This document shows, piece after piece, positions 25,790-51,376 of a stretch of 64,000 nucleotides of DNA. The notes beneath the pieces are model-generated. The model had not been told where the DNA came from, did no database searches, and was given only the letters and a program-made list of their open reading frames with translations. The position numbers and the translations under genes were made by a program. Every line of letters starts with the position of its first letter. The stretch's first letter is position 1. The DNA comes from Bartonella florencae. GTDB lineage: Bacteria > Pseudomonadota > Alphaproteobacteria > Rhizobiales > Rhizobiaceae. The stretch lies in NCBI RefSeq assembly GCF_000312525.1, contig NZ_HE997451.1, forward strand, positions 127,803 to 191,802. The letters run 5' to 3'.

Positions 25790-26500
25790 TCATCCACCAA
25801 GATATGCTTCTTTAACACGTGGATCCGAAAGCATGCTTTTACCTTCACCATGAAATAAAACACGTCCTACCTCTAAAATATAAGCATAATCAGCAATGGA
25901 AAGTGCTGCAAATGCATTTTGTTCAATAAGAAGAACAGTTTTTCCCATATCATTAATTTTCCGGATAATCGAAAAAAGTTCCTTTACAAGAAGTGGTGCT
26001 AGCCCCAGAGAGGGTTCATCTAATATTATCATATCAGGATTGCTCATAAGCGCACGGCCTACAGCCAGCATTTGTTGTTCCCCACCTGACATTGTACCCC
26101 CCAATTGTTTTGCTCTTTCACGCAAGCGCGGGAAAAGCTCAAATATCCATTCAATATCGCGTGCAATTCCAGATTTATCATGACGAATATAAGCACCTAG
26201 ATGGAGATTCTCTAAAACAGTGAAATGGGGCATAATGCGACGTCCTTCAGGACTAAGTGCAATCCCTAATTGCAAAATTTTTTCTGGTGACTTTTTAATA
26301 ATTGATTCACCTTTATAGCTAATCTCTCCATAAACAGATTGATTAAGTCCTGTAATAGAGCGCACAATACTGCTTTTTCCTGCTCCATTGGCACCTATCA
26401 AAGTGACTATACTTCCTTTTTTTATAGACAGAGAAAGATTTTGGATAGCTTTAATGGCACCATAATGAACGTGAAGATTTTTAATTTTAAGAATATCCAT
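25790..26500 (-). CDS. livF: Branched-chain amino-acid type ABC transporter ATP-binding protein LivF
   Basis: 236 residues from the ATG at 26500 (MDILKIKNLHVHYG); the frame is open 28 codons further but runs into livG. Walker A is GANGAGKSS near residue 37, the signature MSGGEQQML near 134, Walker B MIILDEPSLGLAP near 153, with the switch histidine position occupied by Gln in LLIEQNA, as usual in LivF. Cytosolic ATPase partner of the LivHM permease. Its start overlaps the livG reading frame by 14 bp. Confidence 0.93.
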   Translation of the reverse strand: MDILKIKNLHVHYGAIKAIQNLSLSIKKGSIVTLIGANGAGKSSIVRSITGLNQSVYGEISYKGESIIKKSPEKILQLGIALSPEGRRIMPHFTVLENLHLGAYIRHDKSGIARDIEWIFELFPRLRERAKQLGGTMSGGEQQMLAVGRALMSNPDMIILDEPSLGLAPLLVKELFSIIRKINDMGKTVLLIEQNAFAALSIADYAYILEVGRVLFHGEGKSMLSDPRVKEAYLGG

Positions 26501-27268
26501 AAACATCTCCGCCAAGATAAGCTTCAATAACTTTAGGGTTGTTACGAATTTCATCTGGTGTGCCATTGGCAATGCAACAACCATGCTCCATTACAATAAT
26601 ATATTGGCAAAGCCCCATAACAACTTTCATATCGTGTTCAATAAGCAGAATTGTAAGATCAAAGTCTTTTTGCACTTTTGCTATGAATTTCCTGAGATCT
26701 TCACTTTCCTGTGGATTCATACCAGCAACCGGTTCATCAAGAAGAAGCAATTTTGGCTTTGTTGCTAACGCGCGCGCAATTTCTAAACGTCGTTGCACTC
26801 CATAGGGCAGAGACGTTGCTGGTTGATTGGCAAGGTGATCAAGTTTGAGTCTTTCAAGAAGCTCTATTGCATTTTTATAAATTTCTTTTTTTCTTTTACT
26901 GCTTTTGGGAAAAACAGAGCTGAAGAAAACCATGGATGTTTTTGCCGAACATGCGCACCCACCATAACATTTTGTAAGACTGTCAGACCTGCAAAAAGAC
27001 GAATATTTTGAAATGTTCGTGCAATATGGCGTCGACAGATAATATAAGGAGGAGCTCCAGAAAGTTTTTCTTCATCAAGCAGAATGGTTCCACTTGTGGG
27101 GGCATAAAAGCCAGAAATCATATTAAAAACTGTTGTTTTTCCAGCGCCATTGGGACCAATTAATCCAGTAATGGTTCCTCGCTTAATTGCCATATTAATA
27201 TTATTAACAGCAACTAAACCACCAAAACGCATTACAATATCATTGAGTGAAAGGATAGTGTCGTTCAT
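26487..27268 (-). pseudogene. livG: livG with an A7-tract frameshift (ABC ATPase LivG)
   Basis: The second liv ATPase is split into two frames. Frame one (27268 to 26867) encodes the start through Walker A GPNGAGKTT (residues 38-46) and stops after residue 134. The -1 frame continues to 26487 with the signature region LPYGVQRRLEIARAL and Walker B LLLLDEPVAGMNP. The switch is at an A7 tract (minus strand of 26886-26892). Zero-frame codons are GAA AAA AAG, so the tract forms A-AAA-AAG, the classical bacterial -1 slippery heptamer. One more A, or a -1 slip at codons 127-128, yields a normal protein of about 260 residues. Reading options: recent inactivation, sequencing error, or rescue by slippage. 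Confidence 0.85.
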
Positions 27269-28323
27269 AGCTTTCCCTCAGTATTAGAGAGCTTCTTGCG
27301 TGTTAAAAAGTGATAAATTCCATTCCATGAGAATTCACGTTGTCCCAACAAACCTTTTCTCCAAAATAAGATAATAACGAGCAATAAAAGAGAAAAAATA
27401 ATCATCCGGAGTCCTGGTGTCTCTGGAATATGTATAAAACCTAAGTCAAACGGACTTTCAATAATACGAAGCCATTCAAGCATGACTGTAATAATAATGC
27501 TGCCAATAATGCTTCCTGTAATTGAGCCAAGACCACCGGCAACAACAATCATCAAAATATTAAAAGTGAGCAGAAAGTTGAACATTTTGGGATCGATCGT
27601 AGAAATAAGAGCAGCCATCAATGCTCCTCCTACACCTGCAAAAAATGCACCGACAGTAAAGGAAAAACTACGGTAAAAAAAAGCATTAATTCCCATGGTT
27701 TTTGCAGCAATTTCATCATCACGAATAGCACGCAGTACGTTACCAGTATTGCTTCGCAGTAAGAGAACAATAAAGAGAACTGTAAATGCTAACCAACCAT
27801 AGTTCCACCATAATGTTGCTTCTTGAGGAATTCCTTTAATTCCCAAAGAGCCATTTGTTAACGAGGTAGCATTTGTAATAACAATACGGATAATTTCTGC
27901 AAATCCTAATGTTGCAATTCCAAGATAATCACCACCAAGACGCAATATTGGCAGAGCAACCAATAAACCTACAACTGCAGCACATAAACCACTTACAACA
28001 ACAGTGAGAAAAAAAGGTAACTGCAAGTGATATAATGGTTCAGCTATAGGTTCAAGAATCCACATCATTTCTTTTTGTTCGGGGGAAAGAAGTAAAATTG
28101 CGCAGACATAAGCACCAATAGCCATAAAACCAGCATGTCCGAGAGAAAACATTCCAGTAAAACCATAAATCAAATTAAGCGAAATTGCCAATATCGCATT
28201 AATAGCAACAAGATTGATGATACGAAGTGTGTAATCATTAAAATGGTTATCAGCATAAAACAAAAAACCGATAAGAACTAAAATACTGACGCACGATAAA
28301 AACGTTGTTGCTGATTTTCCCAT
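27265..28323 (-). CDS. livM: Branched-chain amino-acid type ABC transporter permease LivM
   Basis: 352-residue inner-membrane permease with about nine hydrophobic helices. The family motifs ISLNLIYGFTGMFSLGHAGFMAIGAY (residues about 45-70, here shown in part) and LRLGGDYLGIATLGFAEIIRI near 128 are present, with RAIRDDEIAAKTMGIN as the cytoplasmic coupling loop near 195. Overlaps livG by 4 bp (ATGA) and abuts livH by one base (TAATG), so the genes are translationally coupled. Confidence 0.93.
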   Translation of the reverse strand: MGKSATTFLSCVSILVLIGFLFYADNHFNDYTLRIINLVAINAILAISLNLIYGFTGMFSLGHAGFMAIGAYVCAILLLSPEQKEMMWILEPIAEPLYHLQLPFFLTVVVSGLCAAVVGLLVALPILRLGGDYLGIATLGFAEIIRIVITNATSLTNGSLGIKGIPQEATLWWNYGWLAFTVLFIVLLLRSNTGNVLRAIRDDEIAAKTMGINAFFYRSFSFTVGAFFAGVGGALMAALISTIDPKMFNFLLTFNILMIVVAGGLGSITGSIIGSIIITVMLEWLRIIESPFDLGFIHIPETPGLRMIIFSLLLLVIILFWRKGLLGQREFSWNGIYHFLTRKKLSNTEGKL

Positions 28324-29393
28324 TAGATTTTCTCCTGACTTTTTTTACCCATTAAGCCCGTGGGCATTATCAATAAAATCAGAATTAATAAAATAAAAGC
28401 GAAGGCATCTCTATAGCCAGATAATGCAGGAAAGAATGCGATAATCATAATTTCAATAAATCCGAGCAATAATCCCCCTAACATTGCTCCTGGAATTGAA
28501 CCGATACCTCCAATAACAGCGGCAATAAATGCTTTAAGCCCTGGAAGAACGCCCATATAAGGATGAATTTGAGGATAACGCAGTGACCACATAATACCCG
28601 CGATAGCGGCAAGTGCTGAGCCTATTCCAAATGTAAATGCAATGACTTTATTGACAGAGACGCCCATCAAACGTGTTGTTTCAATATCATGGGAGATTGC
28701 ACGCATAGCAAGACCAGGTTTTGTTTTGTGGATAATCCACAGCAGCGAAATAATAAGAATAAACGAAACAATAGGAACAATAAGAGACATGGGAGCAATC
28801 CTAATGACTTTGTCTGCTTCTAAATGCCATAAGAATGGTTTTACAAGAAAATCTGGCTGTTTTACACCTTTTGGAACACCGCTAAAGAGTACGGTTGCAA
28901 GATTTTCAATAAAAAAGGAAACACCTATTGCGCCGATAAGTGCCGAGATACGCGGAGCATGGCGAAGAGGTTTATAAGCAAATTGATCAACAATAATTCC
29001 CACTGCACTTGTAATAAAAATGGAAAAACAAAGAGCTAAAACCCAGATCGGTGTAAAATCTTGTGGGGAAATTTTAAAATAATAAACAAATCCTAACGCA
29101 AGAATTAAAAAAATAGCAATCCAATAAATTGAAGGGCGCCTTTTGAAACCTATGAACACCGAATAATAGATGAGAACAGCAAGCAACAAAAGAAGAATTG
29201 CCGCCCAAGCAGGCATAAAACTGATGGTGGAAAAGAAAACAAAATATGCTCCCAACATAAAGATGTCGCCGTGAGCAAAATTAATGAGTCTCAATATACC
29301 ATAGACCATGGTGTAACCAATAGCGATCAGTCCATAAAGAGATCCCAATGCCAGTGCATTAAAAAAATACTGGATGAACATTTCAGTGCTCAT
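28323..29393 (-). CDS. livH: Branched-chain amino-acid type ABC transporter permease LivH
   Basis: 356-residue permease. N-terminal GLIAIGYTMVYGILRLINFA and HGDIFMLGAYF, then an extra hydrophobic stretch around 60-110 that makes it longer than E. coli LivH, as in many alphaproteobacteria. The coupling loop RAISHDIETTRLMGVSVN is near 235, and GGIGSIPGAMLGGLLLG near 300. Forms the membrane channel with LivM. It lies 115 bp downstream of the binding-protein gene, across a hairpin. Confidence 0.93.
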   Translation of the reverse strand: MSTEMFIQYFFNALALGSLYGLIAIGYTMVYGILRLINFAHGDIFMLGAYFVFFSTISFMPAWAAILLLLLAVLIYYSVFIGFKRRPSIYWIAIFLILALGFVYYFKISPQDFTPIWVLALCFSIFITSAVGIIVDQFAYKPLRHAPRISALIGAIGVSFFIENLATVLFSGVPKGVKQPDFLVKPFLWHLEADKVIRIAPMSLIVPIVSFILIISLLWIIHKTKPGLAMRAISHDIETTRLMGVSVNKVIAFTFGIGSALAAIAGIMWSLRYPQIHPYMGVLPGLKAFIAAVIGGIGSIPGAMLGGLLLGFIEIMIIAFFPALSGYRDAFAFILLILILLIMPTGLMGKKSQEKI

Positions 29394-29450
29394 CTCTCAT
29401 CCTTCCACATTTGTTAATTCATATAGGACAAAACAAGAAATTTTTAGACT

Positions 29451-29477
29451 TTAGTTGAGGAAAAAATCCTCAACTAA
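29451..29477 (-). terminator. Hairpin between livK and livH (partial terminator)
   Basis: Perfect 11-bp inverted repeat (TTAGTTGAGGA and its complement) with a five-base loop, 32 bp after the livK stop on the minus strand. The downstream flank reads AGTCTAAAAATTTC rather than a pure T run, so partial attenuation or mRNA 3'-end protection is more likely than full termination. Such a hairpin is common where a binding protein is made in excess over its permease. Confidence 0.6.
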
Positions 29478-29508
29478 TTCTTGTATTTTGATTAATAAAA
29501 CGCTCACT

Positions 29509-30642
29509 TTAAAAAGCAGGTTTAACTTCCTCTAAATAGACACGTTTTCCATCCTTTATTTCAATTATACCAATAGGAATTTTAGGATTATGATTTTCAT
29601 CCATAGACATATTGCCAAAAGGCGTTTGAAAATCTTTTAACTGGCTAAGTGCAATGGTAATTTTTTCACGATCAGCACTGCCAGCATTTTCAATAGCTTT
29701 CATAAACATCATATAACTCGTGTAACCCAAAACAGAATTGATATTTGGTTCTTTATCAGGATAAGCTGCTCTCCACTCATTTGTGAATTCCTGTGCAGCT
29801 GCTGACATATTTGGCATGTCTTCACTGTAGGGAAGGGTCGTATGTAAAAAACCTTCAGCAGCTTTTCCTGCAATTGCAATAGTTTCAGGATTATCCATAG
29901 CATCTCCACCCATGATTTTAAACTTTGCACCTAATTCGCGTGCTTGTTTCATGATGATGGCACCTTCAGAAAAATAAGATGGAATAAATAAGACATCAGG
30001 TTCTTGTGCTATAATCTGTGTAAGAACTGCTGAAAAATCCTGATCTCCAGAATTATAGTTCAAATTGGAGATAACCTCGCCACCTAATTTTTTGAAGGCA
30101 CGTGTGAAATAACTAGCAAGGCCAATCGCATAATCGCTCGATATATCCTTAAGGATAGCTGCTTTTTTTGCATGTAAATTTTGGCTCACATAAGTTGCGA
30201 TGCCTATACCTTGATAGGAATCAATAAAGCAAGTGCGGAAGTAATATTTTTTACCCTGTGTAACAAGTGGACTTGTTGAAGACGTCGCAATACTTGGAGT
30301 TTTTGCCTTTTCAGATATTTCTCCACCAGCCAATGAGAGTGAAGAGCCATAACTACCAATGATTCCATTCACCTTTTCACTTGCAGTTAAACGCATAACA
30401 GCATTTGCAGCTTCTACTTTATCAGACTTATTATCAATAATAATAAGTTCCACTTTACGCCCTAATATCTCTGGAACTTTTTTATGTGCCAACTCTATAC
30501 CTCTAATTTCAAGCTGGCCTCCAAATGCATTTTGACCACTTAATGGGAGGTAAACACCAATTTTAATAGGTTCACTCGCATAGACATTTGCTACAAGTGC
30601 CATGACAGCTGCGAGCGTAGTAAGGATTCTCTTCAATTGCAT
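29509..30642 (-). CDS. livK: ABC transporter substrate-binding protein, branched-chain amino-acid type
   Basis: 377-residue periplasmic-binding-fold type I protein. A signal peptide (residues 1-22, ending VYASE) is followed by IKIGVYLPLSGQNAFGGQ. IDNKSDKVEAANAVMRLTASEKV and GSYGSSLSLAGGEISEKAKTP (each quoted in part as landmarks) are typical of Leu/Ile/Val or amide binding proteins. The ligand cannot be fixed from sequence. First gene of the liv operon, with AAGGAAAG before the start. Confidence 0.9.
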   Translation of the reverse strand: MQLKRILTTLAAVMALVANVYASEPIKIGVYLPLSGQNAFGGQLEIRGIELAHKKVPEILGRKVELIIIDNKSDKVEAANAVMRLTASEKVNGIIGSYGSSLSLAGGEISEKAKTPSIATSSTSPLVTQGKKYYFRTCFIDSYQGIGIATYVSQNLHAKKAAILKDISSDYAIGLASYFTRAFKKLGGEVISNLNYNSGDQDFSAVLTQIIAQEPDVLFIPSYFSEGAIIMKQARELGAKFKIMGGDAMDNPETIAIAGKAAEGFLHTTLPYSEDMPNMSAAAQEFTNEWRAAYPDKEPNINSVLGYTSYMMFMKAIENAGSADREKITIALSQLKDFQTPFGNMSMDENHNPKIPIGIIEIKDGKRVYLEEVKPAF

Positions 30643-30951
30643 TATGCACTTTCCTTAAATTAGTTGTGATTTTTGCACTTTATCTTGAACCTCTTCATCA
30701 TGCAAGTTACACATTCATGAAAATATCATTGTGTGAAAAACCTGTTATATAATTTCTTGAGTGCTTGCTGTAAGATATTGGAGTATAGGATCAGACATTT
30801 TTGTCAATATTTATGTTGATATTAACATTAAGGGATACGACAATATGGGGAAATCTTATCTTGGGGCTTGCGTGTTGAGGCAAGAGCAATGTTTACTTAA
30901 AAGCAGAGAATCAATATTCGTAAATTTAGAGCTACAGGATCACGTTTTATT

Positions 30952-31527
30952 ATGACAAGTAAGGATACATTAAGAGATTGTTCCCTAGCTGAGGACAGTA
31001 TAGGCGCTTGTGGTGAGATTATTGAAATTAGCGGTGTCATTAAGTGGTTTGATGGTAGTAAGGGTTATGGGTTCATTGTCCCTGATTTGCCTCATTTCCC
31101 TGATATATTATTGCATGTTACGGTGATGCGTAGGGATGGTTTTCAAACAGCTTTAGAGGGTGCTAAAGTTATCTGTGCTGTGGAAAAAACTGAACGGGGA
31201 TTAAAGTGTGTTCAAGTGAAATCTATAGATTGTTCTTCAGCAATTCATCCGTCGGAAATTCCAGCCCGTACGCATGTTGTTGTTACTCCGGAAAGTGGTT
31301 TAGAACGCGCAATTGTCAAATGGTTTAATCGCGATAAAGGCTTTGGTTTTCTCAGCCGTGGGCAGGGAACAGAAGATATTTTTATTCATATGGAGACGTT
31401 GCGCCGTTTTGGTCTAGCGGAGCTTCGTTCTGGTCAAGTTGTTCTTGTGCGTTTTGGTAAGGGAGAAAAGGGCTTGATGACAGCGGAAATTTATCCGGAT
31501 ATAGGGATTCCGTTTGCTACACACTAA
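30952..31527 (+). CDS. Protein with two cold-shock domains
   Basis: 191 residues. The first cold-shock domain (about 25-85) begins ISGVIKWFDGSKGYGFI and has an insertion around PDLPHFPDILLHV. The second (about 120-185) has AIVKWFNRDKGFGFLSRG and EDIFIHMETLRRFG. Both carry the aromatic RNP1-like surface (KGYGFI, KGFGFL), so single-stranded nucleic-acid binding is expected. Tandem CspA-like proteins of this size are conserved in Hyphomicrobiales, upstream of a DUF192 gene as here. No typical cold-box leader is recognised. Confidence 0.9.
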   Translation: MTSKDTLRDCSLAEDSIGACGEIIEISGVIKWFDGSKGYGFIVPDLPHFPDILLHVTVMRRDGFQTALEGAKVICAVEKTERGLKCVQVKSIDCSSAIHPSEIPARTHVVVTPESGLERAIVKWFNRDKGFGFLSRGQGTEDIFIHMETLRRFGLAELRSGQVVLVRFGKGEKGLMTAEIYPDIGIPFATH

Positions 31528-31550
31528 ATTGCGCTTTTGTAGTCTTGTCG

Positions 31551-31573
31551 ACTCTCTTTTTTAAAAAGAGAGT
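31551..31573 (+). terminator. Hairpin after the cold-shock gene
   Basis: ACTCTCTTTTT pairs with AAAAAGAGAGT, 23 bp after the stop codon. The stem is strong but lacks a T-tract on its 3' side (TTCGCAT follows), so it may be a weak or rho-assisted terminator. Confidence 0.45.
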
Positions 31574-31784
31574 TTCGCATGGGGGTAAGCAGAAGTAGCT
31601 CTAAAGTGACATGACCAGCGGAATCTATCTATAAAGTTGTTAAATCAAATAAAGCAGATAGTCAGTGTTGCCTAATATTGCATTGAAAGTAATAAGAATA
31701 TCGCTTTTTATATTTCATTTTTAAGTTCTGATGCTTTTTATTTTATACAATAAAATTAAAAATTTTGCTGTAATGGAGATAAAA

Positions 31785-32294
31785 ATGTTAAAGCTTTTTA
31801 GACGAGGGATCATTATTATATTAGCACTCTTTTGTATTTTAGAAGTGAGTGTAGCCGTAGCGAAGAAACCTATGGAAATCCCTGTTCATCCTGTTCCTTT
31901 AAAAATACAGACAAAGCAAGGTGTAATCTCTTACAGGGTAGAAATTGCTTTTACGCCGTCTCAGGCGGCGGCTGGTTTAATGTACCGTACTAATTTTCCA
32001 CGTGATCGCGCAATGATTTTTAGAAATCAGGCAAGCAATGATGAGCAGAAAATGTTTATGTGGATGGCGAATACACCTTTACCCTTGGACATGATTTTTT
32101 TGAATGCTGAAGGAATTATCGTATCGATTGTTGAAAAAACCTCTCCATTTTCAACAGATGTTATTTCATCGAGAGTACCTGCAACTTTTGTCATTGAAGT
32201 TAATGCTGGTGAAGTTTCTGAAAAAAAAATAGAGAAAGGACAGCGTTTTCTTCATCCTGAAATTTGCGGAAAATGCGAAAGTGATACAAAATGA
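31785..32294 (+). CDS. DUF192 family protein, exported
   Basis: 169 residues from the ATG at 31785, chosen for GGAG seven bases upstream; the frame is open 18 codons earlier. A signal peptide (residues 1-26) precedes the compact DUF192 fold, with GLMYRTNFPRDRAMIF and WMANTPLPLDMIFLN as family landmarks. The function of DUF192 is not established. The 3' end overlaps the next gene by 4 bp (ATGA). It contains an in-frame A9 tract at 32221-32229. Confidence 0.88.
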   Translation: MLKLFRRGIIIILALFCILEVSVAVAKKPMEIPVHPVPLKIQTKQGVISYRVEIAFTPSQAAAGLMYRTNFPRDRAMIFRNQASNDEQKMFMWMANTPLPLDMIFLNAEGIIVSIVEKTSPFSTDVISSRVPATFVIEVNAGEVSEKKIEKGQRFLHPEICGKCESDTK

Positions 32295-37439: not shown

Positions 37440-38247
37440 ACGGCCTGTTCTTTTTTTTGATAGTGGTATTGGCGGTTTAACAGTGTTAAGGGAAGTACGC
37501 ATTCTTATTCCTGAAATGCAATTTATTTATGTTGCTGATGATGCTGGATTTCCTTATGGAAATTGGGAAGAAAATGTCTTAAAAGACAGAATTTTAAAGA
37601 TTTTTACAAATCTTTTAACGCTCTATAATCCTACCTTATGTGTCATCGCATGCAATACCGTTTCTACACTGATGATGACAGATTTACGAGAAAAATTTCC
37701 ACATACTCTTTTTGTAGGAACCGTTCCTGCAATTAAATTAGCAGCAGAACAAACCAAATCTGGTTTTATTTCAGTATTAGCCACTCCTGGAACAGTTAAG
37801 CGTGCTTATACACATGAATTAATCAATTCTTTTGCGGCGCAATGTCATGTTCAGCTTGTTGGCAGTGAAAAACTTGCTGGATTTGCTGAAGATTATTTAC
37901 GTGGAAAGCCTATAGATTTGAAAGAATTACGTCATGAAATTCTTCCGTGCTTTGTTAAAAAAAATGGTAAATATACCGATATTATTGTCTTAGCTTGTAC
38001 GCATTATCCTTTTTTGCTTAACTTTTTTCGCCAACAAGCTTTATGGACTGTTGAATGGATTGATCCAGCAAAAGCTATAGCCAAACACACACGCTCATTA
38101 TTACCAAAAAGAATGCATTCCAAAAACATCATAAAGAAACATAAAGATTTTGCTGTATTTACATCGCAAAATATAACTTCTTCAACGGAACGTTTGTTAA
38201 AAGAATTTTACTTAAATATTATGAAAGGAGTTGACTTTGGGGTGTAA
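37432..38247 (+). CDS. murI: Glutamate racemase
   Basis: Interconverts L- and D-glutamate for peptidoglycan. 271 residues from the ATG at 37432 (MDKRPVLFFDSGIGG), which overlaps the upstream stop. The two catalytic cysteines are in VIACNTVST (near 77) and VLACTHYPFL (near 188), with DDAGFPYGNW near 40. The T8 tract at 37451-37458 is in frame. Confidence 0.96.
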   Translation: MDKRPVLFFDSGIGGLTVLREVRILIPEMQFIYVADDAGFPYGNWEENVLKDRILKIFTNLLTLYNPTLCVIACNTVSTLMMTDLREKFPHTLFVGTVPAIKLAAEQTKSGFISVLATPGTVKRAYTHELINSFAAQCHVQLVGSEKLAGFAEDYLRGKPIDLKELRHEILPCFVKKNGKYTDIIVLACTHYPFLLNFFRQQALWTVEWIDPAKAIAKHTRSLLPKRMHSKNIIKKHKDFAVFTSQNITSSTERLLKEFYLNIMKGVDFGV

Positions 38248-40240: not shown

Positions 40241-41553
40241 TTAAACAGCAATACCATAAAGATCATAGGCATCTGATTTTTCAATTTTTACTGTGACAAA
40301 TTCACCGACACGCAGTGGTCGTCGTGATGATATGTGCACAACACCATCTATTTCTGGAGCATCATATTGGCTACGGCCTTTAGCAATTTTCCCTTGGCTT
40401 TCATCAATGAGGATTTGGAGTCTTTTTCCGATTTTCTTCTTTAAAAGATGGGTAGAAATTTGTTGTTGTTTTGCCATAAAGCGATGCCAGCGACTTTCTT
40501 TTACTTCTTCAGAAACATTTTCTAGTCCCAAATCATTAGCGACAGCGCCTTTTACTTTTTCATATTTAAAACATCCCGCGCGTTCAATTTTTGCTTCTTC
40601 TAGCCATTCGAGAAGCATATTAAAATCTTCATTTGTTTCGCCTGGAAAGCCAACAATAAATGTTGATCGTAAAGCGAGATCTGGACAAATTTCTCTCCAC
40701 TTTTCAATTCTACGATTTGTTTTTTCCATAACAGCAGGACGTTTCATATTACGTAAAACAACGGGTGACGCATGTTGAAAAGGAATATCCAGATAAGGAA
40801 GAATTTTTTTCCAGCCATAAGCTCAATAACTTCATCCACATGAGGATAAGGATAGACATAATGCATACGTATCCAAATACCCATATCACCGAGTTCACGA
40901 CAAAGATCAAAAAATTTGGTTTTTACGCTACGGTCTTTCCAAGGATTTTCAAGATATTTAAGATCAATACCATAAGCACTCGTATCTTGTGAGATAACCA
41001 AAAGCTCTTTTACACCGGCTTGTACAAGTTTTTCAGCTTCGCGAAGAACATCACTGATAGGACGTGAAATAAGATTACCACGTAGAGTAGGAATAATACA
41101 AAAGCTACATCGATTAGAACATCCTTCAGAAATTTTCAAATAAGCATAATGGCGAGGTGTTAAACGAATTCCTTGTGGAGGAACTAAATCAATAAAGGGT
41201 TCATGAACTGGAGGAATTGCGGCATGAACAGCCTCTATAACACTTTCATAAGCTTGTGGCCCCGTAATGGCTAATACATGAGGATGGGTTTGACGAATAA
41301 TGTCAGGATCAGAACCAAGACAGCCAGTCACAATAACTTTGCCATTTTCTTTGAGGGCTTCATCAATATTCGCTAATGATTCATTGCGTGCAGAATCAAG
41401 AAAACCACAAGTATTTACAATAACAACATCAGCACCCTGATGCTTCCGTGAGATTTCATAACCTTCAGACCTGAGTTTGGTAATAATTCGTTCAGAATCT
41501 ACCAGTGCTTTTGGACATCCGAGGGAGACAAAACTAATACGAGGTGCTGTCAT
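40241..41553 (-). pseudogene. rimO: rimO with an A7-tract frameshift (ribosomal protein S12 methylthiotransferase)
   Basis: RimO adds a methylthio group to an Asp of ribosomal protein S12 by radical-SAM chemistry. Frame one (from 41553) encodes the MTTase domain ([12 protein letters not shown]) and the radical-SAM motif CSNRCSFC near 145, then leaves the family alignment after ELMAGKK (residue 250). The -1 frame continues with [14 protein letters not shown] through [13 protein letters not shown] to a C-terminal TRAM domain ending at 40241. The switch is at A7 (minus strand of 40804-40810), zero-frame codons GGA AAA AAA. One extra A, or a -1 slip on A-AAA-AAA, gives 437 residues, the normal length. 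No other defect is seen. Confidence 0.85.
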
Positions 41554-41781: not shown

Positions 41782-42495
41782 TTAATATTTGCGAATAAGT
41801 CCAATAAGTTTACCTTGTATCTGTACACGCTCAGATTCATACATTCGCGTTTCATAATGAGGGTTTGCTGCTTCTAGTACTACAAAAGCTCCTTTGCGTC
41901 GATAACGTTTTAAAGCTGCTTCTTTGTTATCAATAAATACAATAACAATTTCACCTGATGTTGCTGTATTCTGACGTTTGACAATTATAATATCCTTATC
42001 AAGAATGCCAGCTTCAACCATAGAATTATCTCTGACTTCTAATGCGTAGTGCTCGCCTGAATTAATCATATCTGCTGGTAAGGAGAGCGTGTCTATTTGT
42101 TGCAATAGTGCGGAGATGGGTATATTTGCAGCAATGCGGCCCATAATAGGAAGAGTGACATTTTTTGTTTTTTCTTCCTCAAAGTTATCAAGCTCACCAA
42201 AGTTTTTTGATATTTTTCTTTTATTTTTCTCTATCATACTAGGAGAAATTTTACGCGCTAAAGAAAGATTAAATGTTATTTTATCGGGAAGTCGAATCAC
42301 TTCTACTGCACGGGCACGATTTGGTAAACGACGTATAAAACCTCGTTGTTCTAAGGCTATCATGAGCTTATGAATCCCAGACTTTGAAGAAAGTTCTAAT
42401 GCTATTTTCATTTCATCAAAGGAAGGGGGAATACCAGTTGCTTTCATATGATTATGAATGAACAAAAGTAGTTCATACTGTTTACATGTTAGCAT
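41782..42495 (-). CDS. lexA: LexA repressor with an altered cleavage site
   Basis: SOS repressor, 237 residues. The N-terminal winged-helix domain (1-68) is close to the alphaproteobacterial type, with SKSGIHKLMIALEQRGFIRR as recognition region. The C-terminal S24 peptidase domain keeps the catalytic serine (Ser158 in RDNSMVEAGI) and lysine (Lys196 in EAALKRY). The self-cleavage bond, normally Ala-Gly, is Ala123-Asn124 here (GRIAANIPISAL), and the usual Gly-Asp before the serine is Asp-Asn. No GTTC or GAAC tetramer occurs in the 220 bp upstream, so the usual autoregulatory box is missing; a palindrome lies at 42538-42560 instead. RecA-stimulated self-cleavage may be impaired. Confidence 0.93.
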   Translation of the reverse strand: MLTCKQYELLLFIHNHMKATGIPPSFDEMKIALELSSKSGIHKLMIALEQRGFIRRLPNRARAVEVIRLPDKITFNLSLARKISPSMIEKNKRKISKNFGELDNFEEEKTKNVTLPIMGRIAANIPISALLQQIDTLSLPADMINSGEHYALEVRDNSMVEAGILDKDIIIVKRQNTATSGEIVIVFIDNKEAALKRYRRKGAFVVLEAANPHYETRMYESERVQIQGKLIGLIRKY

Positions 42496-43465: not shown

Positions 43466-43501
43466 CCGTTAACTTTCTACAGAGCAGAATAGCTTTTGTG
43501 G

Positions 43502-43577: not shown

Positions 43578-44047
43578 ACTTTAAATGAAATCAATTAGCT
43601 ATACAAAAACTTAGGAATTTTTGTTGCTTTGATTCTTTAAATTTACTTTTCTATTTATCGCATAATTTTTTAATGTTTTATTGATTCTATTCTAAGCATT
43701 TTTTCAGCGCTTTGAGTATAAAGTAATACTGTGAGAATATAGTTGTTCTCTCATTAATCAAAATAACTGGCTATTTATGATTCATTGCATTTATAGAAAA
43801 CATCTTTTTTATAAAGATATTGATTTTTTTATTTTTTAAAATTCATTCATCATTTCTATGACAGACATATTTTGTGGAAACATAAAAATATTAACGATAT
43901 ATTAATTCTTGATAAATGGTTAATTTTAGGTTTATTATAGCCGCCGTGAGGGGAATCATCAAAAAATGTGAATTTCCTTATCGTATACAGAAGATGCGAT
44001 GTGATTTTTTACAGTAAATACTCAATGAGAAATAAGCGGGCTGACAA
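43578..44047. other. Spacer between tRNA-Lys and rlpA
   Basis: 470 bp, AT-rich, with no ORF. The last 130 bp contain a less AT-rich patch (TAGCCGCCGTGAGGGG near 43938-43953) that probably belongs to the rlpA leader or promoter. Confidence 0.4.
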
Positions 44048-44917: not shown

Positions 44918-44961
44918 CAGTTAACTAATTGCAGCTATTGAAAGAAAAATAATATTTGTTT

Positions 44962-45006
44962 CTGATCATCTATAATTTAAAGACTATAGATGATCAGGAT
45001 TTTTTG
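44962..45006 (+). terminator. Rho-independent terminator after rlpA
   Basis: CTGATCATCTATA pairs perfectly with TATAGATGATCAG (13 bp) around a ten-base loop, followed by GATTTTTT. It ends the rlpA transcript and isolates it from the dac operon. Confidence 0.9.
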
Positions 45007-45271
45007 CTATAATAAGGTCTTCATTACCTGTAAAAAAGTAAGATTAATTCTTATTCTAAAGCAGTATGATGCTTTGCCTATCTTAGAACATAAGAAATAA
45101 ATCCCACATGAGAAATAAAAGAAAAAATATATTGGTTTATTTTGATGATACTGAATCAAAATAGAAACCTGTTTTAATTTCATGATATGATTCTTAGTCG
45201 GCAGAAAAACAAGTCTTTTCTTGTATAAGAAGATTCTTTATGCTGTTTCTCCAAATATGAGAGGAGCGGCT

Positions 45272-46434
45272 ATGCACACGACATTAAGGGTTTTATTCAC
45301 CTTAGTTTGGATGTTGACATTAGACGGGTGGGGGAGAGCGCAAGATTTTCAAAATTCTGCATCACAAATACTGCTACTTGATAATGATACAGATACAATA
45401 CTTTTTGAAAAACAAAGCGATATTACTTTTTTTCCAGCTTCATTAACAAAATTGATGACCGCTGAAGTCATATTTCATCAATTAAAAGAAGGCTTATTAA
45501 GCAGTACACAAAAATTCAAGATTAGTGAAAATGCTTGGCACAAAGGTGGAGCAATTTCTGGTACCACCACTATGTTTGCAAAAGTAAAGACAGAAATTAG
45601 TGTTTCTGATCTTTTGCGTGGTTTAATTATTGTCAATGGAAATGATGCGGCGATTGCTCTTGCTGAGGGCATAGCGGGAAGCGAGGCTAATTTTGCAAAA
45701 CTCATGAATCAACGAGCTAAAATACTTGGGCTATCGCATAGTCACTTTGTAAACGCGACGGGGTTTCCTGAAGAAGGACAATTTGTGTCATTGCGCGATA
45801 TGATCATATTAGCGCGTCATATTGTTCATGAATATCCCGATTATTATACGCTTTACAGCGAACCTCATTTTACTTGGAATAATATTTTTCAACGTAACAA
45901 AAATCCTCTCATTTCCAAAGAAATTGGTGTAGAAGGATTTACTTTTGGTTACAGTAAAGATGAAGGATTTTCGATGGTTGTTTCTGTTTATAAAAATCAT
46001 CGGCGTCTTTTTTTGGCAATAAATGGTTTGCGAGATGGTAAAGGACACACAAAAGAAATAGAGCGTATTCTTCAATGGGGTATGACAGCTTTTGATTTTA
46101 AAACGATTTTCACACAAGGAGAGACTATTGGCCATGCTTCTGTTTATGGTGGGATGCAAAATTCTGTTTCTGTTATTGTTAAAGAGCCTATAAATCTTAT
46201 GCTTTCGAATGAAAAAAAATGAATGTTAAAGCAAAAATTAAATATCATGGCCCCTTAAAAGCTCCGATCATTTTAGGACAACCGGTTGGTGTTTTGCAAA
46301 TTTTAGAAGATAAAAAGATTCTTCTCGAAAAAACAGTTTTTGCTGGAAATAATGTTCAGGAAGGAAGCTTTTTTATAAAAGTAAAAAACGCACTCTATGA
46401 ATTAACAATTGGCTGGTTACAGAAATATTTATAG
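45272..46434 (+). pseudogene. D-Ala-D-Ala carboxypeptidase homolog, frameshifted before its C-terminal domain
   Basis: Penicillin-binding protein of the DacC/DacF family, start at 45272 (GAGGAG five bases before). After a signal peptide the active-site SLTK is intact (Ser57-Lys60). However, the SxN motif reads NGN (122-124) and the KTG motif TFG (224-226, in GVEGFTFGYSKDEG). Frame one ends with TGA at 46222 after 316 residues. The PBP5 C-terminal domain (MNVKAKIKYHGPLKAPI to 46434) is in the -1 frame, starting at an ATG that overlaps the stop. The junction is an A8 tract (46212-46219), so one more A would give a single 387-residue protein. Alternatively the two parts are made separately by coupling. 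Confidence 0.8.
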
Positions 46435-46464
46435 TGTGTGCTCAATAAGGGTTGAGGTTTATAC

Positions 46465-47112
46465 GTGTCAGGTTATTTTATTACATTTGAAGGGGGGGAA
46501 GGGGCAGGGAAAACAACGCAAATTTCTTTGCTCGCTCAGTATCTTTCTAACAAAGGCTACAATGTTATTACAACACGAGAGCCAGGTGGAACAGAAGGTG
46601 CTGAAGCAATACGTTATATTTTGTTGTCGGGTCAGGCCCAACAATATGGGGCATTCGTTGAAGCAGCTTTATTTACAGCCGCACGTGCTGATCATGTTAG
46701 CGAAATTATTATACCAGCGCTGCAAAAAGGCAAAATCATTTTATGTGATCGCTTTATTGATTCTACGCGCGTTTATCAAGGACTCAATGATAGGGTCAAT
46801 TCTTCTATTCTTACCATTTTAGAATCTGTTGCTCTCAATGGGATAATACCTCATCTAACATTTTTATTAGATATACCAGCAACATATGGTATGGAACGCG
46901 CAAAAGTGCGAAGAAAAAAAACAGAAACGATTGATTATTTTGAAAAAGATAATTTAAAGATTCAAGAGCAAAGGCGCCAAGCTTTTTTGCAATTAGCAAA
47001 ACAGGAGCCTAATAGATTCCGAGTGATTGACGCCACAGCTGCAATAGAAATTATTGCACAAAAAATAAAAAATATTTGTCATCAGCTATTGTTGGATCAA
47101 GCTCATGAGTGA
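46465..47112 (+). CDS. tmk: Thymidylate kinase
   Basis: Phosphorylates dTMP to dTDP. 215 residues starting at GTG (MSGYFITFEGGEGAGKTTQI, with the P-loop GGEGAGKTT). DR(H/Y)-type motif REPGGTEGAEAIR near 38, CDRFIDSTRVYQG near 93 and the LID region RAKVRRKKTETIDYFE near 148 are present. Its end overlaps holB by 8 bp, in the conserved dac-tmk-holB-metG-tatD order. Confidence 0.96.
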   Translation: MSGYFITFEGGEGAGKTTQISLLAQYLSNKGYNVITTREPGGTEGAEAIRYILLSGQAQQYGAFVEAALFTAARADHVSEIIIPALQKGKIILCDRFIDSTRVYQGLNDRVNSSILTILESVALNGIIPHLTFLLDIPATYGMERAKVRRKKTETIDYFEKDNLKIQEQRRQAFLQLAKQEPNRFRVIDATAAIEIIAQKIKNICHQLLLDQAHE

Positions 47113-48148
47113 CGTAAATATTCTACACCAATATGATGATATTGATACAGTTTTATCACCTTCACAGAATAATGTCATCTTTGGTCATGAGGATGCCCGT
47201 CATCTTTTGGCGTGCATGCGTGAAGAGGGACGTTTGCACCATGCATTGTTATTTGAAGGAAAACATGGAATTGGAAAGGCTACATTAGCATTTCATCTTG
47301 CTTGGAATATTCTAAGCTCTCAAAAGGGCAGTTTTTTGCAGCCAGAGCATAATTCCATTACATGGAATCAAATTATGCAAGGCTGTCATCCTGGTCTTTT
47401 GCATATTTCGCGCCGCTTTGATTTTAAAACACAAAAGTTCAAAACAGGTATACTCATTGATGATATCCGCGATGTGATGCATTTTTTAAACCAAACATCG
47501 CAAGATAATGGATGGCGTATTGTTATCATTGATCCTGCAGAGGATATGAATAGAAGTGCAGCTAATGCAATTCTCAAAACGCTTGAAGAACCTCCTGCAA
47601 AGACTTTATTCATCATTATTACACACTCTTTAGGAAAATTGCTTCCAACAATTCGTTCACGATGCCAACAGATTTCTTTGCGGCCATTACATGATGATGA
47701 GATGAAACAAGTCATTACGCATATTTTTTCAAATCAGAATTTACCTGATAAAGAAATCATTGAAATGATTATTGAAAGATCCAAAGGAAGCCCTCGAAAA
47801 GCTGCTTTACTTATGTGCCATGGTGGTTTTGAAATTATTAAAACCATTGATACTTTTTTAGAGCAATCTATTTGTAACTTTGCTGTTGTACACACTCTTG
47901 CACAAACACTTTCATCCCTTTCTTCTACACTTCAGTTTCAACAATTTTGTGATGAAATTCTTGATAAAATTCAAAAAAAAGCTATCCTATTTGCTGAAAG
48001 AGGAGCGTTAGCTCTCTCAAAGAAATGTGCGCAAGCGTGGCAGGAGATTCATCAAGAAATAGAAGAAATGCAATCATTTAATCTTGATAAGAAGCAATTT
48101 ATGATTAATTTGCTTTTAAAAGTTCATAAGGTCATTCACAATGAGTGA
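47105..48148 (+). CDS. holB: DNA polymerase III subunit delta'
   Basis: Clamp-loader subunit, 347 residues, AAA+ fold. P-loop-like LLFEGKHGIGKATLAFHLAW near 50 and sensor region NRSAANAILKTLEEPP near 158, then SRCQQISLRPL. The zinc-binding cysteines found in E. coli delta' are absent, as commonly seen in alphaproteobacteria. Overlaps tmk by 8 bp. Confidence 0.93.
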   Translation: MSDVNILHQYDDIDTVLSPSQNNVIFGHEDARHLLACMREEGRLHHALLFEGKHGIGKATLAFHLAWNILSSQKGSFLQPEHNSITWNQIMQGCHPGLLHISRRFDFKTQKFKTGILIDDIRDVMHFLNQTSQDNGWRIVIIDPAEDMNRSAANAILKTLEEPPAKTLFIIITHSLGKLLPTIRSRCQQISLRPLHDDEMKQVITHIFSNQNLPDKEIIEMIIERSKGSPRKAALLMCHGGFEIIKTIDTFLEQSICNFAVVHTLAQTLSSLSSTLQFQQFCDEILDKIQKKAILFAERGALALSKKCAQAWQEIHQEIEEMQSFNLDKKQFMINLLLKVHKVIHNE

Positions 48149-48225
48149 GCTTTTTCCGTGACAATGCCATTAACAGACGTTATGTCTCAGTGTAATCTTT
48201 TATTGCGTTTTACAATGAGTATGAC

Positions 48226-49785
48226 ATGCGTGACACATATTATATAACAACTCCAATTTTTTATCCTAATGGCACTCCACATATTGGACATGCCTATAGT
48301 GCAATTACAAGTGATGTTTTGGCTCGTTTTCAACGATTAGATGGGAAAAATGTATTTTTTCTTTCTGGTACAGATGAGCACGGCTTAAAGATGCAACAAA
48401 CGGCAGAAGCGTTGGGTATGACAGCTCAGCAACTTGCAGATCGTAATAGCGCTGTATTTCAAAAAATGCTTGCAGTTTTAAATTGTTCTAATGATGATTT
48501 TATCCGCACAACAGAAGAGCGCCACTATAAAGCCTGTCAAGAAATTTGGAAAAAGATGGAAGCGAATGGCGATATTTATCTTGGTCGTTATACGGGTTGG
48601 TATTCAGTTCGCCAAGAAGCATATTATGAAGAGAAAGATACTGAAATTGGAGAAGACAATGTCCGCCGCGAAAAGGAGTTAGGCTCTCCTGTTGAATGGA
48701 ATGAAGAGGAAAGTTATTTTTTTAAGCTTTCACGCTATGAAAAAGTTCTTCTAGAACATTATGAAAAACATCCTAATTTTGTTGCTCCCCTTGAGCGACG
48801 TAATGAAGTCATTAGTTTTATCAAATCAGGTTTAAAAGATATTTCTATTTCGCGGGCAAATTTTAATTGGGGTGTTGCTGTTCCCAATAATCCAAAGCAT
48901 GTGATGTATGTTTGGGTCGATGCGCTTACAAATTATCTGTCAGCTATTGGTTTTTTTGATGAAAATTCAAAAAAACGTAATTTTTGGCCTGCAAATACGC
49001 ATATTATTGGTAAAGATATCCTTCGTTTTCATGCGGTCTATTGGCCAGCATTTTTAATATCCGCTGGAATTGAATTGCCTAAACATATTTTTGCGCATGG
49101 TTTTTTACTCAATCGCGGTGCAAAAATGTCAAAGTCCATTGGAAATGTCGTTGATCCTTTTGAAATGGTTGATCATTATGGCCTTGATCAGTTTCGTTAT
49201 TTTTTGCTTCGAGAAGTACCATTTGGACAAGATGGCAGTTATAGCCATGATGGTTTTGTAAATCGCATTAATGCAGATCTTGCTAATGATCTTGGTAATT
49301 TAGCACAGCGTTCTTTGTCTATGATTGCCAAAAATTGCCATGCAAAAGTTCCCCAACCTGCAGCTTTTTTAGTTCAAGATAAGCAGCTTTTAGAACAGTC
49401 TCTTCAAACGCTTTCACTTGTGCGCCAAGCGATGTCTTCTCACGGGATACATTTAGCACTTTCAGTTATTTTTTCACTCATAGCAGACGTTAACCGTTAT
49501 TTTGCTAGCGAACAGCCTTGGAGTTTACGAAAAAATAATCCAGAGCGATTTTGTACGGTTCTTTATACAACTGTAGAAATTCTTCGGCGCATAGGAATTA
49601 TGCTTTTGCCTTTCATACCACAGTCAGCAAGCAAGCTTCTCGATAGCCTTGCGATTGCTGAAGATAAGAGGTTACTGTATCATATCAGTCATACAAGAAT
49701 TCAAGAAGGTCTTGATATTCCGCCACCGGAACCAATCTTTCCCCGTTATATCTTAAGAAAAGATGAGATACATCATGCTGATTGA
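48226..49785 (+). CDS. metG: Methionyl-tRNA synthetase
   Basis: 519 residues, the short single-chain form without a C-terminal tRNA-binding domain. HIGH-class motif PNGTPHIGHAYSAI near 12-25 and KMSKS motif AKMSKSIGNVVDP near 300. The connective-peptide knuckle has no cysteine cluster (GWYSVRQEAYYEE), the zinc-free type. The anticodon-binding helical domain ends near 500. Overlaps tatD by 11 bp. Confidence 0.96.
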   Translation: MRDTYYITTPIFYPNGTPHIGHAYSAITSDVLARFQRLDGKNVFFLSGTDEHGLKMQQTAEALGMTAQQLADRNSAVFQKMLAVLNCSNDDFIRTTEERHYKACQEIWKKMEANGDIYLGRYTGWYSVRQEAYYEEKDTEIGEDNVRREKELGSPVEWNEEESYFFKLSRYEKVLLEHYEKHPNFVAPLERRNEVISFIKSGLKDISISRANFNWGVAVPNNPKHVMYVWVDALTNYLSAIGFFDENSKKRNFWPANTHIIGKDILRFHAVYWPAFLISAGIELPKHIFAHGFLLNRGAKMSKSIGNVVDPFEMVDHYGLDQFRYFLLREVPFGQDGSYSHDGFVNRINADLANDLGNLAQRSLSMIAKNCHAKVPQPAAFLVQDKQLLEQSLQTLSLVRQAMSSHGIHLALSVIFSLIADVNRYFASEQPWSLRKNNPERFCTVLYTTVEILRRIGIMLLPFIPQSASKLLDSLAIAEDKRLLYHISHTRIQEGLDIPPPEPIFPRYILRKDEIHHAD

Positions 49786-50548
49786 TACACATTGCCATCT
49801 TGATTTTGAAGATTTTTCACAAGACTTGGATGATGTAATTCGACGGGCTTTAGATGTTGGTGTTGAACGTATGATAACAATTTCTACGCATGTCCGTAAA
49901 TTAGATAAGTTGTTGGCAATTGCACAAAGCTATGACCAAGTATTTTGTTCCGTTGGCACGCATCCAAATCATGCCCATGAAGAACAAAATATTACCGCTA
50001 AAGAGCTTATCCACCTCTCAAAGCATCCTAAAATTGTTGCTTTTGGAGAGGTTGGCCTTGATTATCATTACGATTATTCCTCACCAGAAGAACAAAAAAA
50101 GGTTTTTCAAGAACATATTATTGCGTCTCGAGAAACACAGCTTCCTCTTGTTATACATTCACGCAATGCCGACTCAGATATGGAAAGAATATTACGTGAG
50201 CAAATAAAAGAAGCTACTTTTCCATTTGTCCTTCATTGTTATTCATCTGGGATGCAACTTGCTCGTGTTGGTATTGAACTTGGTGGTTATATTTCTTTTT
50301 CAGGGATTTTGACTTTTAAAAATGCGCTTGAAATTCGTGAGATAGCAAAAATTGTACCGCATGAGTATCTATTGGTGGAAACGGATGCACCATTTTTAGC
50401 CCCTGTTCCTCATCGAGGTAAAACAAATGAGCCATCTTTTGTATGCTATACAGCAGCTATTTTGGCTGAAACAATTGGTTTAAGCATGGAAGAGATCGCT
50501 CAAATTACAACGCGTAATGCTTTTCGTTTGTTTAACAAAATGAAATAA
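49775..50548 (+). CDS. tatD: TatD family metal-dependent deoxyribonuclease
   Basis: 257 residues from the ATG at 49775; an ATG at 49763 is also in frame. TIM-barrel metallo-hydrolase with MLIDTHCHLDFEDF, GEVGLDYHYDYS, LVIHSRNAD, FVLHCYSSG and LVETDAPFLAPVPHRGK, i.e. the full set of metal ligands. Probable 3'-5' DNA exonuclease. Its start lies within the 3' end of metG, and the MBL hydrolase follows 10 bp downstream. Confidence 0.93.
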   Translation: MLIDTHCHLDFEDFSQDLDDVIRRALDVGVERMITISTHVRKLDKLLAIAQSYDQVFCSVGTHPNHAHEEQNITAKELIHLSKHPKIVAFGEVGLDYHYDYSSPEEQKKVFQEHIIASRETQLPLVIHSRNADSDMERILREQIKEATFPFVLHCYSSGMQLARVGIELGGYISFSGILTFKNALEIREIAKIVPHEYLLVETDAPFLAPVPHRGKTNEPSFVCYTAAILAETIGLSMEEIAQITTRNAFRLFNKMK

Positions 50549-50558
50549 GGCAAAAGGT

Positions 50559-51376
50559 ATGTCTGATCGGTACCAATTCACGATATTAGGTTGTGGTCCC
50601 TCTCCAGGAGTACCACGCCCCAATGGTGACTGGGGAGCTTGTGATCCAAACAACCCTAAGAATGAACGCTATAGAAGTTCTTTGTTAGTTGAACGCATTA
50701 AACCATCAGGAAAAAAACAACAGTGGTTATTGACACTGGTCCAGATTTTAGATCACAAATGATCAATGCTCACGTAAACCATCTTGATGCCGCACTTTAT
50801 ACACATTCTCATGCGGATCATATTCACGGTATTGATGATTTGCGCAGTTATGCACTTGCACAAAAATGTTTAATAGATATCTATGCAGATATATTCACTC
50901 TAAAACATTTAAAAAATGCTTTCGGATATTGTTTCCAAACACCAAAAGGTTCCTCTTATTCACCCATTTTAAAAGCACATATCATCAATGAAGATAGTCA
51001 ATTCATCATTCAAGGGCAGGGTGGAGCAATAGCTGTCAGTACACATTTACAATGTCACGGTAATATTCATTCTTTAGGTTTTCGTATTGGTAATGTTGCT
51101 TACTGTACAGATGTGAGTAAATTTCCTGAAAAAACATTACTAAAACTTATGAATTTGGATGTTCTCATTATTGAAGCTCTTCAATTTGAAAAACATCCAA
51201 GCCATTTTTCTGTTGATCAAGCATTACAATGGATAAAATACTTACAGCCAAAACAAGCAATCCTTACACATATGGATAGATCACTGGATTACAATAAAGT
51301 GGCAAACTATGTTCCACCCCATGTTAAGCCTGCATATCAAGGTCTCATTTTTGAAACAGATGTAAAAGCCTTATAA
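50559..51376 (+). pseudogene. Metallo-beta-lactamase-fold hydrolase (PhnP-like) with an A7-tract frameshift
   Basis: Frame one starts MSDRYQFTILGCGPSPGVPR and stops at 50762 after 67 residues; only the first 53 fit the family. The -1 frame from 50717 (TTVVIDTGPDFRSQMI) carries the metal site HSHADHIHGID, HLQCHGN, CTDVSKF and the C-terminal LTHMD to 51376. The junction is A7 at 50711-50717, zero-frame codons GGA AAA AAA CAA. One extra A gives a normal 272-residue protein. Family members near tatD are phosphodiesterase-like (PhnP group); the substrate is unknown. Last gene of the dac-to-tatD operon. Confidence 0.85.

What the first reader, a model, noticed from the sequence alone, without database searches (positions are those of the whole stretch)
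26487..51376. Four genes broken at coding-strand A7/A8 tracts, all one A short and all restorable by a -1 slip
livG (A7), rimO (A7), the PhnP-like MBL gene (A7) and the D,D-carboxypeptidase (A8) are each otherwise complete but change frame exactly at a poly-A tract. All four need one extra A, on both genomic strands. In the same window, at least nine A8/A9 or T8 tracts in coding sequence stay in frame (accC 953-960, glpD 4220-4227, cobT near 7334, topA 15520-15527, pyrC' 20091-20098, DUF192 A9 at 32221-32229, murI T8 at 37451-37458, two in rlpA). The shared direction fits three explanations: systematic homopolymer undercalling in the assembly, ongoing decay by slippage mutation, or tolerated frameshifts rescued by RNA-polymerase or ribosome slippage, as reported for some AT-rich endosymbionts. 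The four genes are otherwise free of damage, which argues against old pseudogenes.
Basis: partly seen in the sequence, partly recalled or inferred. Interest (0 to 1): 0.72.

Follow-up and report, generated by a model that had tools for sequence, protein, structure and literature searches.

The report
Four sequencing-error frameshifts at poly-A runs
Four bacterial genes look broken at runs of the letter A, but the evidence points to the sequencing machine miscounting those runs in an old draft genome rather than to real broken or self-repairing genes.

Summary
A scan with relatives' intact proteins finds the four breaks at the stated tracts, all -1: livG A7, rimO A7, a D,D-carboxypeptidase A8, an MBL-fold hydrolase A7. 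The window is a Bartonella contig, most probably B. florencae R4, a genome sequenced only by Roche 454 and assembled with Newbler (PMC3910550). Best explanation: 454 homopolymer undercalling. Support: length dependence; the same break type in another 454 Bartonella draft; too few long A-runs in both; more breaks than in 11 other assemblies (6 of 337 against 3 of 1265 tracts, p=0.004); purifying selection that continues after each break, close to intact orthologues. The direction is not universal: ribD in the same genome breaks at A8 the opposite way. Programmed frameshifting is unlikely: in most relatives the frame is intact, there is no downstream structure, and the slippery heptamer is at background frequency. 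Loose end: the nearest sister genome (G042) breaks livG at the same tract, but that assembly also looks error-prone. Resequencing four amplicons would settle it.

The parts
26864..27268 (-). livG, first piece (ATP-binding protein of branched-chain amino-acid ABC transporter), runs out of frame after the A7 tract
   Evidence: NF008449 positions 1-123; Pfam ABC_tran 1-80
26886..26892 (-). A7 tract in livG where the frame changes (-1); holds an in-phase A_AAA_AAG heptamer
   Evidence: same tract broken in sister genome G042
26487..26933 (-). livG, second piece
   Evidence: NF008449 positions 124-254; BCA_ABC_TP_C
40744..41553 (-). rimO, first piece (ribosomal protein S12 methylthiotransferase)
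   Evidence: TIGR01125 positions 1-243
40804..40810 (-). A7 tract in rimO where the frame changes (-1)
40241..40747 (-). rimO, second piece (end of the radical-SAM domain and TRAM domain)
   Evidence: TIGR01125 positions 265-432; TRAM_2
45221..46222 (+). D,D-carboxypeptidase (Peptidase_S11), first piece
   Evidence: Peptidase_S11 and PBP5_C 1-43
46212..46219 (+). A8 tract in the D,D-carboxypeptidase gene where the frame changes (-1)
46219..46434 (+). D,D-carboxypeptidase, second piece (rest of the PBP5_C domain)
   Evidence: PBP5_C 45-91
50559..50762 (+). MBL-fold metallohydrolase, first piece
   Evidence: NF038231 positions 2-41
50711..50717 (+). A7 tract in the MBL gene where the frame changes (-1)
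50723..51376 (+). MBL-fold metallohydrolase, second piece
   Evidence: NF038231 positions 47-249; Lactamase_B_2

Best explanation
The four frame changes are most likely consensus errors of a Roche 454/Newbler draft. Pyrosequencing reads the length of a homopolymer from signal strength, and long A/T runs are called short in a length-dependent fraction of cases. Read from this draft, ordinary intact genes appear split in the -1 sense. Shown: the breaks, their tracts, their sign, the length dependence, the low dN/dS, the shortage of long runs and the excess over other assemblies. Shown from a paper: the platform of B. florencae R4. Inferred: that the window is B. florencae R4, and that the true tracts are in frame.
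For: (1) Identity and platform: the genus is Bartonella (record titles). Of 29 named loci compared, the window is nearest in DNA to phoceensis, ML69XJBT and ML70XJBT.G (84.0, 83.7 and 83.7%); apart from each other those two isolates are nearest to the window, ML70XJBT.G only just (83.65 against 83.63% for phoceensis). Both isolates have B. florencae R4 as closest type strain (PMC10132096, passages). R4 was sequenced by 454 GS FLX Titanium only, 36x, 3-kb paired ends, Newbler 2.5.3, 2,010,844 bp (PMC3910550, passages). G000 has 2,045,420 bp with N gaps; about 2.02 Mb without N by extrapolation. (3) Length dependence in G000, counts: +1 break about 1 of 150 tracts of inferred length 7; -1 breaks 3 of about 63 and 2 of about 9 at the next two lengths. 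(4) Missing tail: A-runs of 10 or more, 2 observed against 7.8 expected from 30 near relatives (P=0.016), and of 9 or more, 62 against 79.6 (P=0.024); G056 alike (3 against 8.2; 65 against 84.0); ranks 2 and 3 lowest of 34 for runs of 10 or more. (5) Strict break rate 6 of 337 coding A/T tracts of 7 or more in G000 against 3 of 1265 in 11 other assemblies, p=0.004; with looser counting 7 of 337 against 5 of 1265, p=0.005; against only the 8 scanned with the same three reference genomes 3 of 800, p=0.02. (6) dN/dS stays low after the break. (7) Intact in relatives at the site: MBL 43 of 43, rimO 24 of 25, D,D-carboxypeptidase 32 of 32, livG 28 of 29 plus G065. (8) mutS and mutL open in G000, so no sign of a mismatch-repair mutator. 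(9) Literature: 454 assembly errors favour A/T runs, rise with length, and low-GC genomes may have 20% or more of genes affected (PMC3277595, passages).
Against: No raw reads or second assembly of this strain could be examined. The species name is inferred, and the paper's contig count (62 in 14 scaffolds) and G+C (38.5%) do not equal G000's 89 contigs and my sample's 37.6%. livG is broken at the same tract in the sister genome G042, which a single inherited frameshift would also explain. Tract breaks occur in other assemblies too, strict: G034, G028 and G062 one each. G062 (B. queenslandensis AUST/NH15), which I recall as another 454 draft but did not check, shows no tail shortage (97 runs of 9 or more against 89.3 expected). 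Four breaks within 25 kb is denser than the rest of the contig (P=0.004, uncorrected). All six strict breaks are on coding-strand A, none on T; a strand-blind error would give that with probability about 0.08 (222 A and 115 T tracts).
Confidence: 0.8

Rival explanations
1. Real, recent slippage mutations: long A tracts mutated in this strain or its near ancestor, and the genes are young pseudogenes with no time to decay.
For: Tract breaks are found in other Bartonella assemblies (G034 +1 at A8, G028 -1 at A8; platforms not checked); rimO is broken in several places in B. koehlerae; the liv operon seems dispensable, with no livM match in 3 of 61 genus genomes and only a weak one in a fourth.
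Against: Odds of a tract break about 7.6 times those of 11 other assemblies; long-run shortage across the whole genome; mutS and mutL intact; ribD, a biosynthetic gene, is also hit.
Confidence: 0.14
2. Frameshifts are real and tolerated because RNA polymerase or the ribosome slips at the tracts and makes some full-length protein.
For: All four tracts hold an in-phase A_AAA_AA(A/G) heptamer; low dN/dS after the break; livG broken at the same tract in two sister genomes, with dN/dS 0.106 between their second pieces.
Against: The heptamer is in 85 of 160 A7 and 53 of 67 A8 coding runs, so 4 of 4 is not unusual (about 0.12). No downstream structure (z 0.84, -0.31, 2.52, 0.11). No Shine-Dalgarno-like stimulator seen by eye upstream. 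Runs of 7 or more A near the site only in 3 of 28, 13 of 24, 22 of 32 and 21 of 43 intact relatives. A documented rescue used 11 A (PMC4256274, passages). A transcriptome study of E. [quoted passage not shown]
Confidence: 0.05
3. Phase-variable (contingency) tracts that switch the genes on and off.
For: Homopolymer tracts inside coding sequence.
Against: Tracts are short (7-8), present in only part of the intact relatives, and the genes look like housekeeping rather than surface genes.
Confidence: 0.01

Closest known systems
Roche 454 homopolymer consensus errors (PMC3277595, passages seen)
   Same: A/T runs, more errors at longer runs, frameshifted genes in a low-GC genome
   Different: Raw reads not available here to show the error directly
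Transcriptional slippage rescue, Citrobacter rodentium tssM (PMC4256274, passages seen)
   Same: Frame interrupted at a poly-A tract
   Different: tssM has 11 A and about 20-25% frameshifting with function shown; here 7-8 A, frame intact in nearly all relatives, no expression data
dnaX-type programmed -1 ribosomal frameshifting (recalled)
   Same: In-phase A_AAA_AAG in livG, A_AAA_AAA in the other three
   Different: No downstream structure and no upstream stimulator seen by eye; frame intact in nearly all relatives
Poly-A frameshift decay or rescue in Buchnera and Blochmannia (PMC5574713 passages; PMC3017870 listing only)
   Same: AT-rich host-associated bacterium, poly-A tracts in genes
   Different: Bartonella is only moderately AT-rich (37.6% GC in the sample) and relatives keep the genes intact

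Membership tests
454 homopolymer undercall artefact | Assembly made from 454 reads | tested here: inconclusive
   True of B. florencae R4; identity of the window with R4 inferred from nearest relatives and size
454 homopolymer undercall artefact | Errors rise with run length and are mostly deletions | tested here: met
   One search counts: about 1/150, 3/63, 2/9; 5 of 6 strict breaks are -1 (small numbers)
454 homopolymer undercall artefact | Shortage of long called runs genome-wide | tested here: met
   2 against 7.8 expected runs of 10 or more; B. senegalensis alike; G062 not
454 homopolymer undercall artefact | Genes otherwise under normal selection | tested here: met
   dN/dS; livG slightly above its intact relatives
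454 homopolymer undercall artefact | Tract longer in accurate reads | not testable with these tools
   No reads and no second assembly of the strain found in the collections used
Programmed -1 ribosomal frameshifting | In-phase slippery heptamer | tested here: met
   4 of 4, but background 53% (A7) and 79% (A8)
Programmed -1 ribosomal frameshifting | Downstream RNA structure | tested here: not met
   z-scores 0.84, -0.31, 2.52, 0.11
Programmed -1 ribosomal frameshifting | Frameshift conserved in orthologues | tested here: not met
   Intact in all or all but one relative at each site; livG shared only with G042
Transcriptional slippage rescue | Tract long enough for efficient slippage (11 A in tssM) | tested here: not met
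   7-8 A; comparison from PMC4256274
Transcriptional slippage rescue | Length heterogeneity in cDNA | not testable with these tools
   No transcript data
Old pseudogene | Relaxed selection or further lesions | tested here: not met
   dN/dS close to intact orthologues; one frame change per gene
Contingency locus | Tract conserved among relatives | tested here: not met
   Runs of 7 or more A in 3/28, 13/24, 22/32 and 21/43 intact relatives

The most novel reading that the evidence does not exclude
The livG frameshift is real and was inherited by both this species and its sister genome G042, and the gene has stayed under purifying selection since they parted (dN/dS 0.106 across the second pieces). 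Full-length LivG would then be made by -1 slippage at the in-phase A_AAA_AAG tract, a newly arisen recoding site in a Bartonella sublineage.
Probability: 0.05. Interest if true: 0.6.

Novelty: not a real feature. Interest (0 to 1): 0.15.

Why it matters
If the artefact reading is right, the practical lesson is that this draft, and at least one other 454 Bartonella draft held as a species representative (B. senegalensis, with lexA and rnr apparently broken), carries false pseudogenes at poly-A runs. Statements about gene loss in these species would need checking. If the livG case were real, it would be a naturally arisen recoding event that can be placed on the Bartonella tree.

Tried and rejected
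Mutator by loss of mismatch repair: rejected, mutS and mutL are open in G000. Programmed frameshifting: the heptamer looked striking (4 of 4) until the background was counted, and folding gave nothing. Strand bias as an argument against the artefact: A tracts outnumber T tracts about 2 to 1 in coding strands, so six of six on A is not decisive. A T7 frame change at window 38416 was dropped because it lies upstream of the profile start of rpsD. Single-reference, low-identity frame changes (for example around 24.2 kb and 58.2-58.9 kb of the window) were not counted. Under the strict rule (two reference genomes, or both sides 78% identity or more) I dropped one site each of G000, G056, G010 and G028 that pass the looser rule. 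My note gives 27 of 28 for rimO; the checked count is 24 of 25. A paper search for Bartonella with transcriptional slippage found none. Searches spelling the species florencae did not list its genome paper, whose title has florenciae; it came up by accession prefix.
Full report
What the window is. The genus is Bartonella: the metG gene of the window finds 43 named Bartonella loci at 70-90% identity. The window is G000 contig 1, bases 127803-191802, of a 2.05-Mb assembly in 89 contigs. Of 29 named loci compared, the window's nearest in DNA are B. phoceensis (84.0%) and isolates ML69XJBT and ML70XJBT.G (83.7% each). Apart from each other, those two isolates are nearest to the window, ML70XJBT.G by a hair (83.65 against 83.63% for phoceensis). 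A paper on them gives B. florencae R4 as their closest type strain (PMC10132096, passages). The R4 genome paper reports 454 GS FLX Titanium alone, one 3-kb paired-end library, 36x, Newbler 2.5.3, 62 contigs in 14 scaffolds, 2,010,844 bp (PMC3910550, passages). G000 carries scaffold gaps of mostly 0.5-1.3 kb, and by extrapolation about 2.02 Mb without N. The identity is an inference, which I hold at about 0.85. Mismatches to tell: the paper's contig numbers are not 89, and its G+C is 38.5% where my sample has 37.6%.

The observation. A scan was made in which open reading frames of G021, G010 and G045 were searched by tblastn against 623 kb of contig 1 (320,541 coding nt covered). It found the four breaks at the stated tracts, all with the sign of a missing base (first pass). 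Tracts: 26886-26892, 40804-40810, 46212-46219 and 50711-50717. Family profiles run on from first to second piece. Beyond the window two more well-supported tract breaks appeared: a NifS-like cysteine desulfurase (A8, -1; two references) and ribD (A8, +1; three references). A further single-reference case in an efflux-family gene was noted and not pursued. So five of six strict breaks are -1, and the shared direction is a tendency, not a law.

Are the genes intact elsewhere? At the four sites one frame runs through in 28 of 29 livG copies (the exception is G042) plus G065, 24 of 25 rimO copies (B. koehlerae is broken in several places), 32 of 32 D,D-carboxypeptidase copies and 43 of 43 MBL copies. 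Loci without an orthologue of at least 60% identity are left out: 18 for rimO, 11 for the carboxypeptidase. At a lower bar the carboxypeptidase is in one frame in 39 of 40 loci, B. massiliensis being split elsewhere in the gene. A run of 7 or more A lies within about 15 nt of the site in 3 of 28, 13 of 24, 22 of 32 and 21 of 43 of the intact copies. The tract is therefore not a conserved element.

Selection. dN/dS against G010 in the pieces before and after the break is 0.081 and 0.110 (livG), 0.114 and 0.068 (rimO), 0.190 and 0.290 (carboxypeptidase) and 0.047 and 0.089 (MBL). Intact relatives give 0.033-0.072 and 0.052-0.091, 0.072-0.101 and 0.066-0.110, 0.169-0.218 and 0.157-0.445, and 0.038-0.115 and 0.095-0.127, leaving out two paralogue hits with dS above 1.2. 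livG lies slightly above its relatives on both sides, and rimO's first piece does too. The genes are not old pseudogenes. Very recent breaks, sequencing errors and rescued genes all fit this.

Artefact against biology. Three lines favour the artefact. First, rate: 6 strict breaks per 337 coding A/T tracts of 7 or more in G000, against 3 per 1265 in 11 other assemblies (p=0.004). The comparison is not perfectly even: three of the 11 were scanned with two reference genomes rather than three. Against the eight scanned with the same three references it is 3 of 800 (p=0.02); with looser counting it is 7 of 337 against 5 of 1265 (p=0.005); an earlier count with fewer controls gave 6 of 337 against 4 of 895 (p=0.03). 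Second, the length distribution of A-runs over the whole genome: runs of 10 or more number 2 where 7.8 are expected from 30 near relatives, and runs of 9 or more 62 where 79.6 are expected. G000 ranks second lowest of 34 on the first measure and fourth on the second. The known 454 draft B. senegalensis (PMC3746424; G056) ranks third and second. The lowest on both, G042, has a broken metG, which is an essential gene (general knowledge), and five strict tract breaks in 77 kb. The three tail-deficient assemblies together have 13 of 587 tracts broken against 3 of 1265 (p=6e-5). The grouping by tail was made after seeing the break data of G000 and G056, which weakens this p. Third, length dependence within G000: about 0.7%, 5% and 22% for successive lengths inferred, on six events. 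Mismatch repair is intact, so a mutator does not explain the shortage of long runs. PMC3277595 (passages) describes the same pattern for 454 assemblies.

Rescue by slippage. All four tracts contain an in-phase A_AAA_AA(A/G) heptamer, and in livG it is the A_AAA_AAG known from dnaX (recalled). But 85 of 160 A7 and 53 of 67 A8 coding runs of this genome have one too, so four of four has a chance of about 0.12. The 70 nt downstream fold no better than shuffled sequence. A documented transcriptional rescue used 11 A (PMC4256274, passages), and a genome-wide study of E. coli and Buchnera transcripts reports no case of a restored frame (PMC5574713, passages).

The loose end. G042, the closest relative among 71 genus genomes searched (90% over one 1,044-nt gene), changes frame in livG at the same A7, while its rimO, carboxypeptidase and MBL genes are intact. 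Either both assemblies miscount a run that the two sisters share, or the frameshift was inherited. In the second case dN/dS of 0.106 between the second pieces (8.5 nonsynonymous and 19.5 synonymous differences) would mean the gene still works. From G042's own coding breaks about 1 in 22 runs of the relevant length is miscalled, and its run-length tail suggests more, so a coincidence at one of three or four tracts is of order 10-30% (inference). I therefore keep the recoding reading at 0.05.

Unresolved. Four of the six strict breaks of a 623-kb sample fall in 25 kb (P=0.004 uncorrected, computed for the 64-kb window). Local low read depth would explain it but cannot be tested here.

Verdict. 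Interest is low unless livG is confirmed by accurate resequencing in both sister strains.

Noticed in passing
L261:8858 (+), L204; window 26886-26892: The sister genome G042 breaks livG at the same A7 tract as the window; 29 other copies examined (28, G065) are in one frame there.
   Followed up: partly
L173:6372, L180:3399, L260:13528; window lexA 41782-42495 is intact: lexA changes frame at a poly-A tract in B. senegalensis, in B. queenslandensis AUST/NH15 and in G042. Of the 24 named loci with an orthologue, 21 are in one frame, 2 broken and 1 partial: probably assembly errors at a long tract.
   Followed up: partly
L260:7688 (-): G042, a single-contig assembly, has a broken metG and the strongest shortage of long A-runs of 34 near genomes, so it looks error-prone.
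   Followed up: partly
L112:4374 (+): ribD of this genome changes frame at A8 in the opposite sense to the four genes of the finding.
   Followed up: partly
L117:1960 (-): A NifS-like cysteine desulfurase gene of this genome breaks at A8 near its start, -1.
   Followed up: partly
L174:16180 (+), L169:685 (+): B. senegalensis 454 draft: RNase R broken at A8 (three references), and cckA apparently at A7 (one reference).
   Followed up: no
L055 (rimO) and L047 (D,D-carboxypeptidase): B. koehlerae C-29 rimO is broken in several places, which looks like real decay; B. massiliensis carboxypeptidase changes frame elsewhere, near a T6.
   Followed up: no
window 46219-46222 and 40744-40747: In both the carboxypeptidase and rimO, the second open frame starts with an ATG overlapping the stop of the first (ATGA); probably chance.
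   Followed up: no
L222:10587 (-): A single-reference, lower-identity frame change near a T8 in a gene of the MFS efflux family; left out of the strict counts.
   Followed up: no
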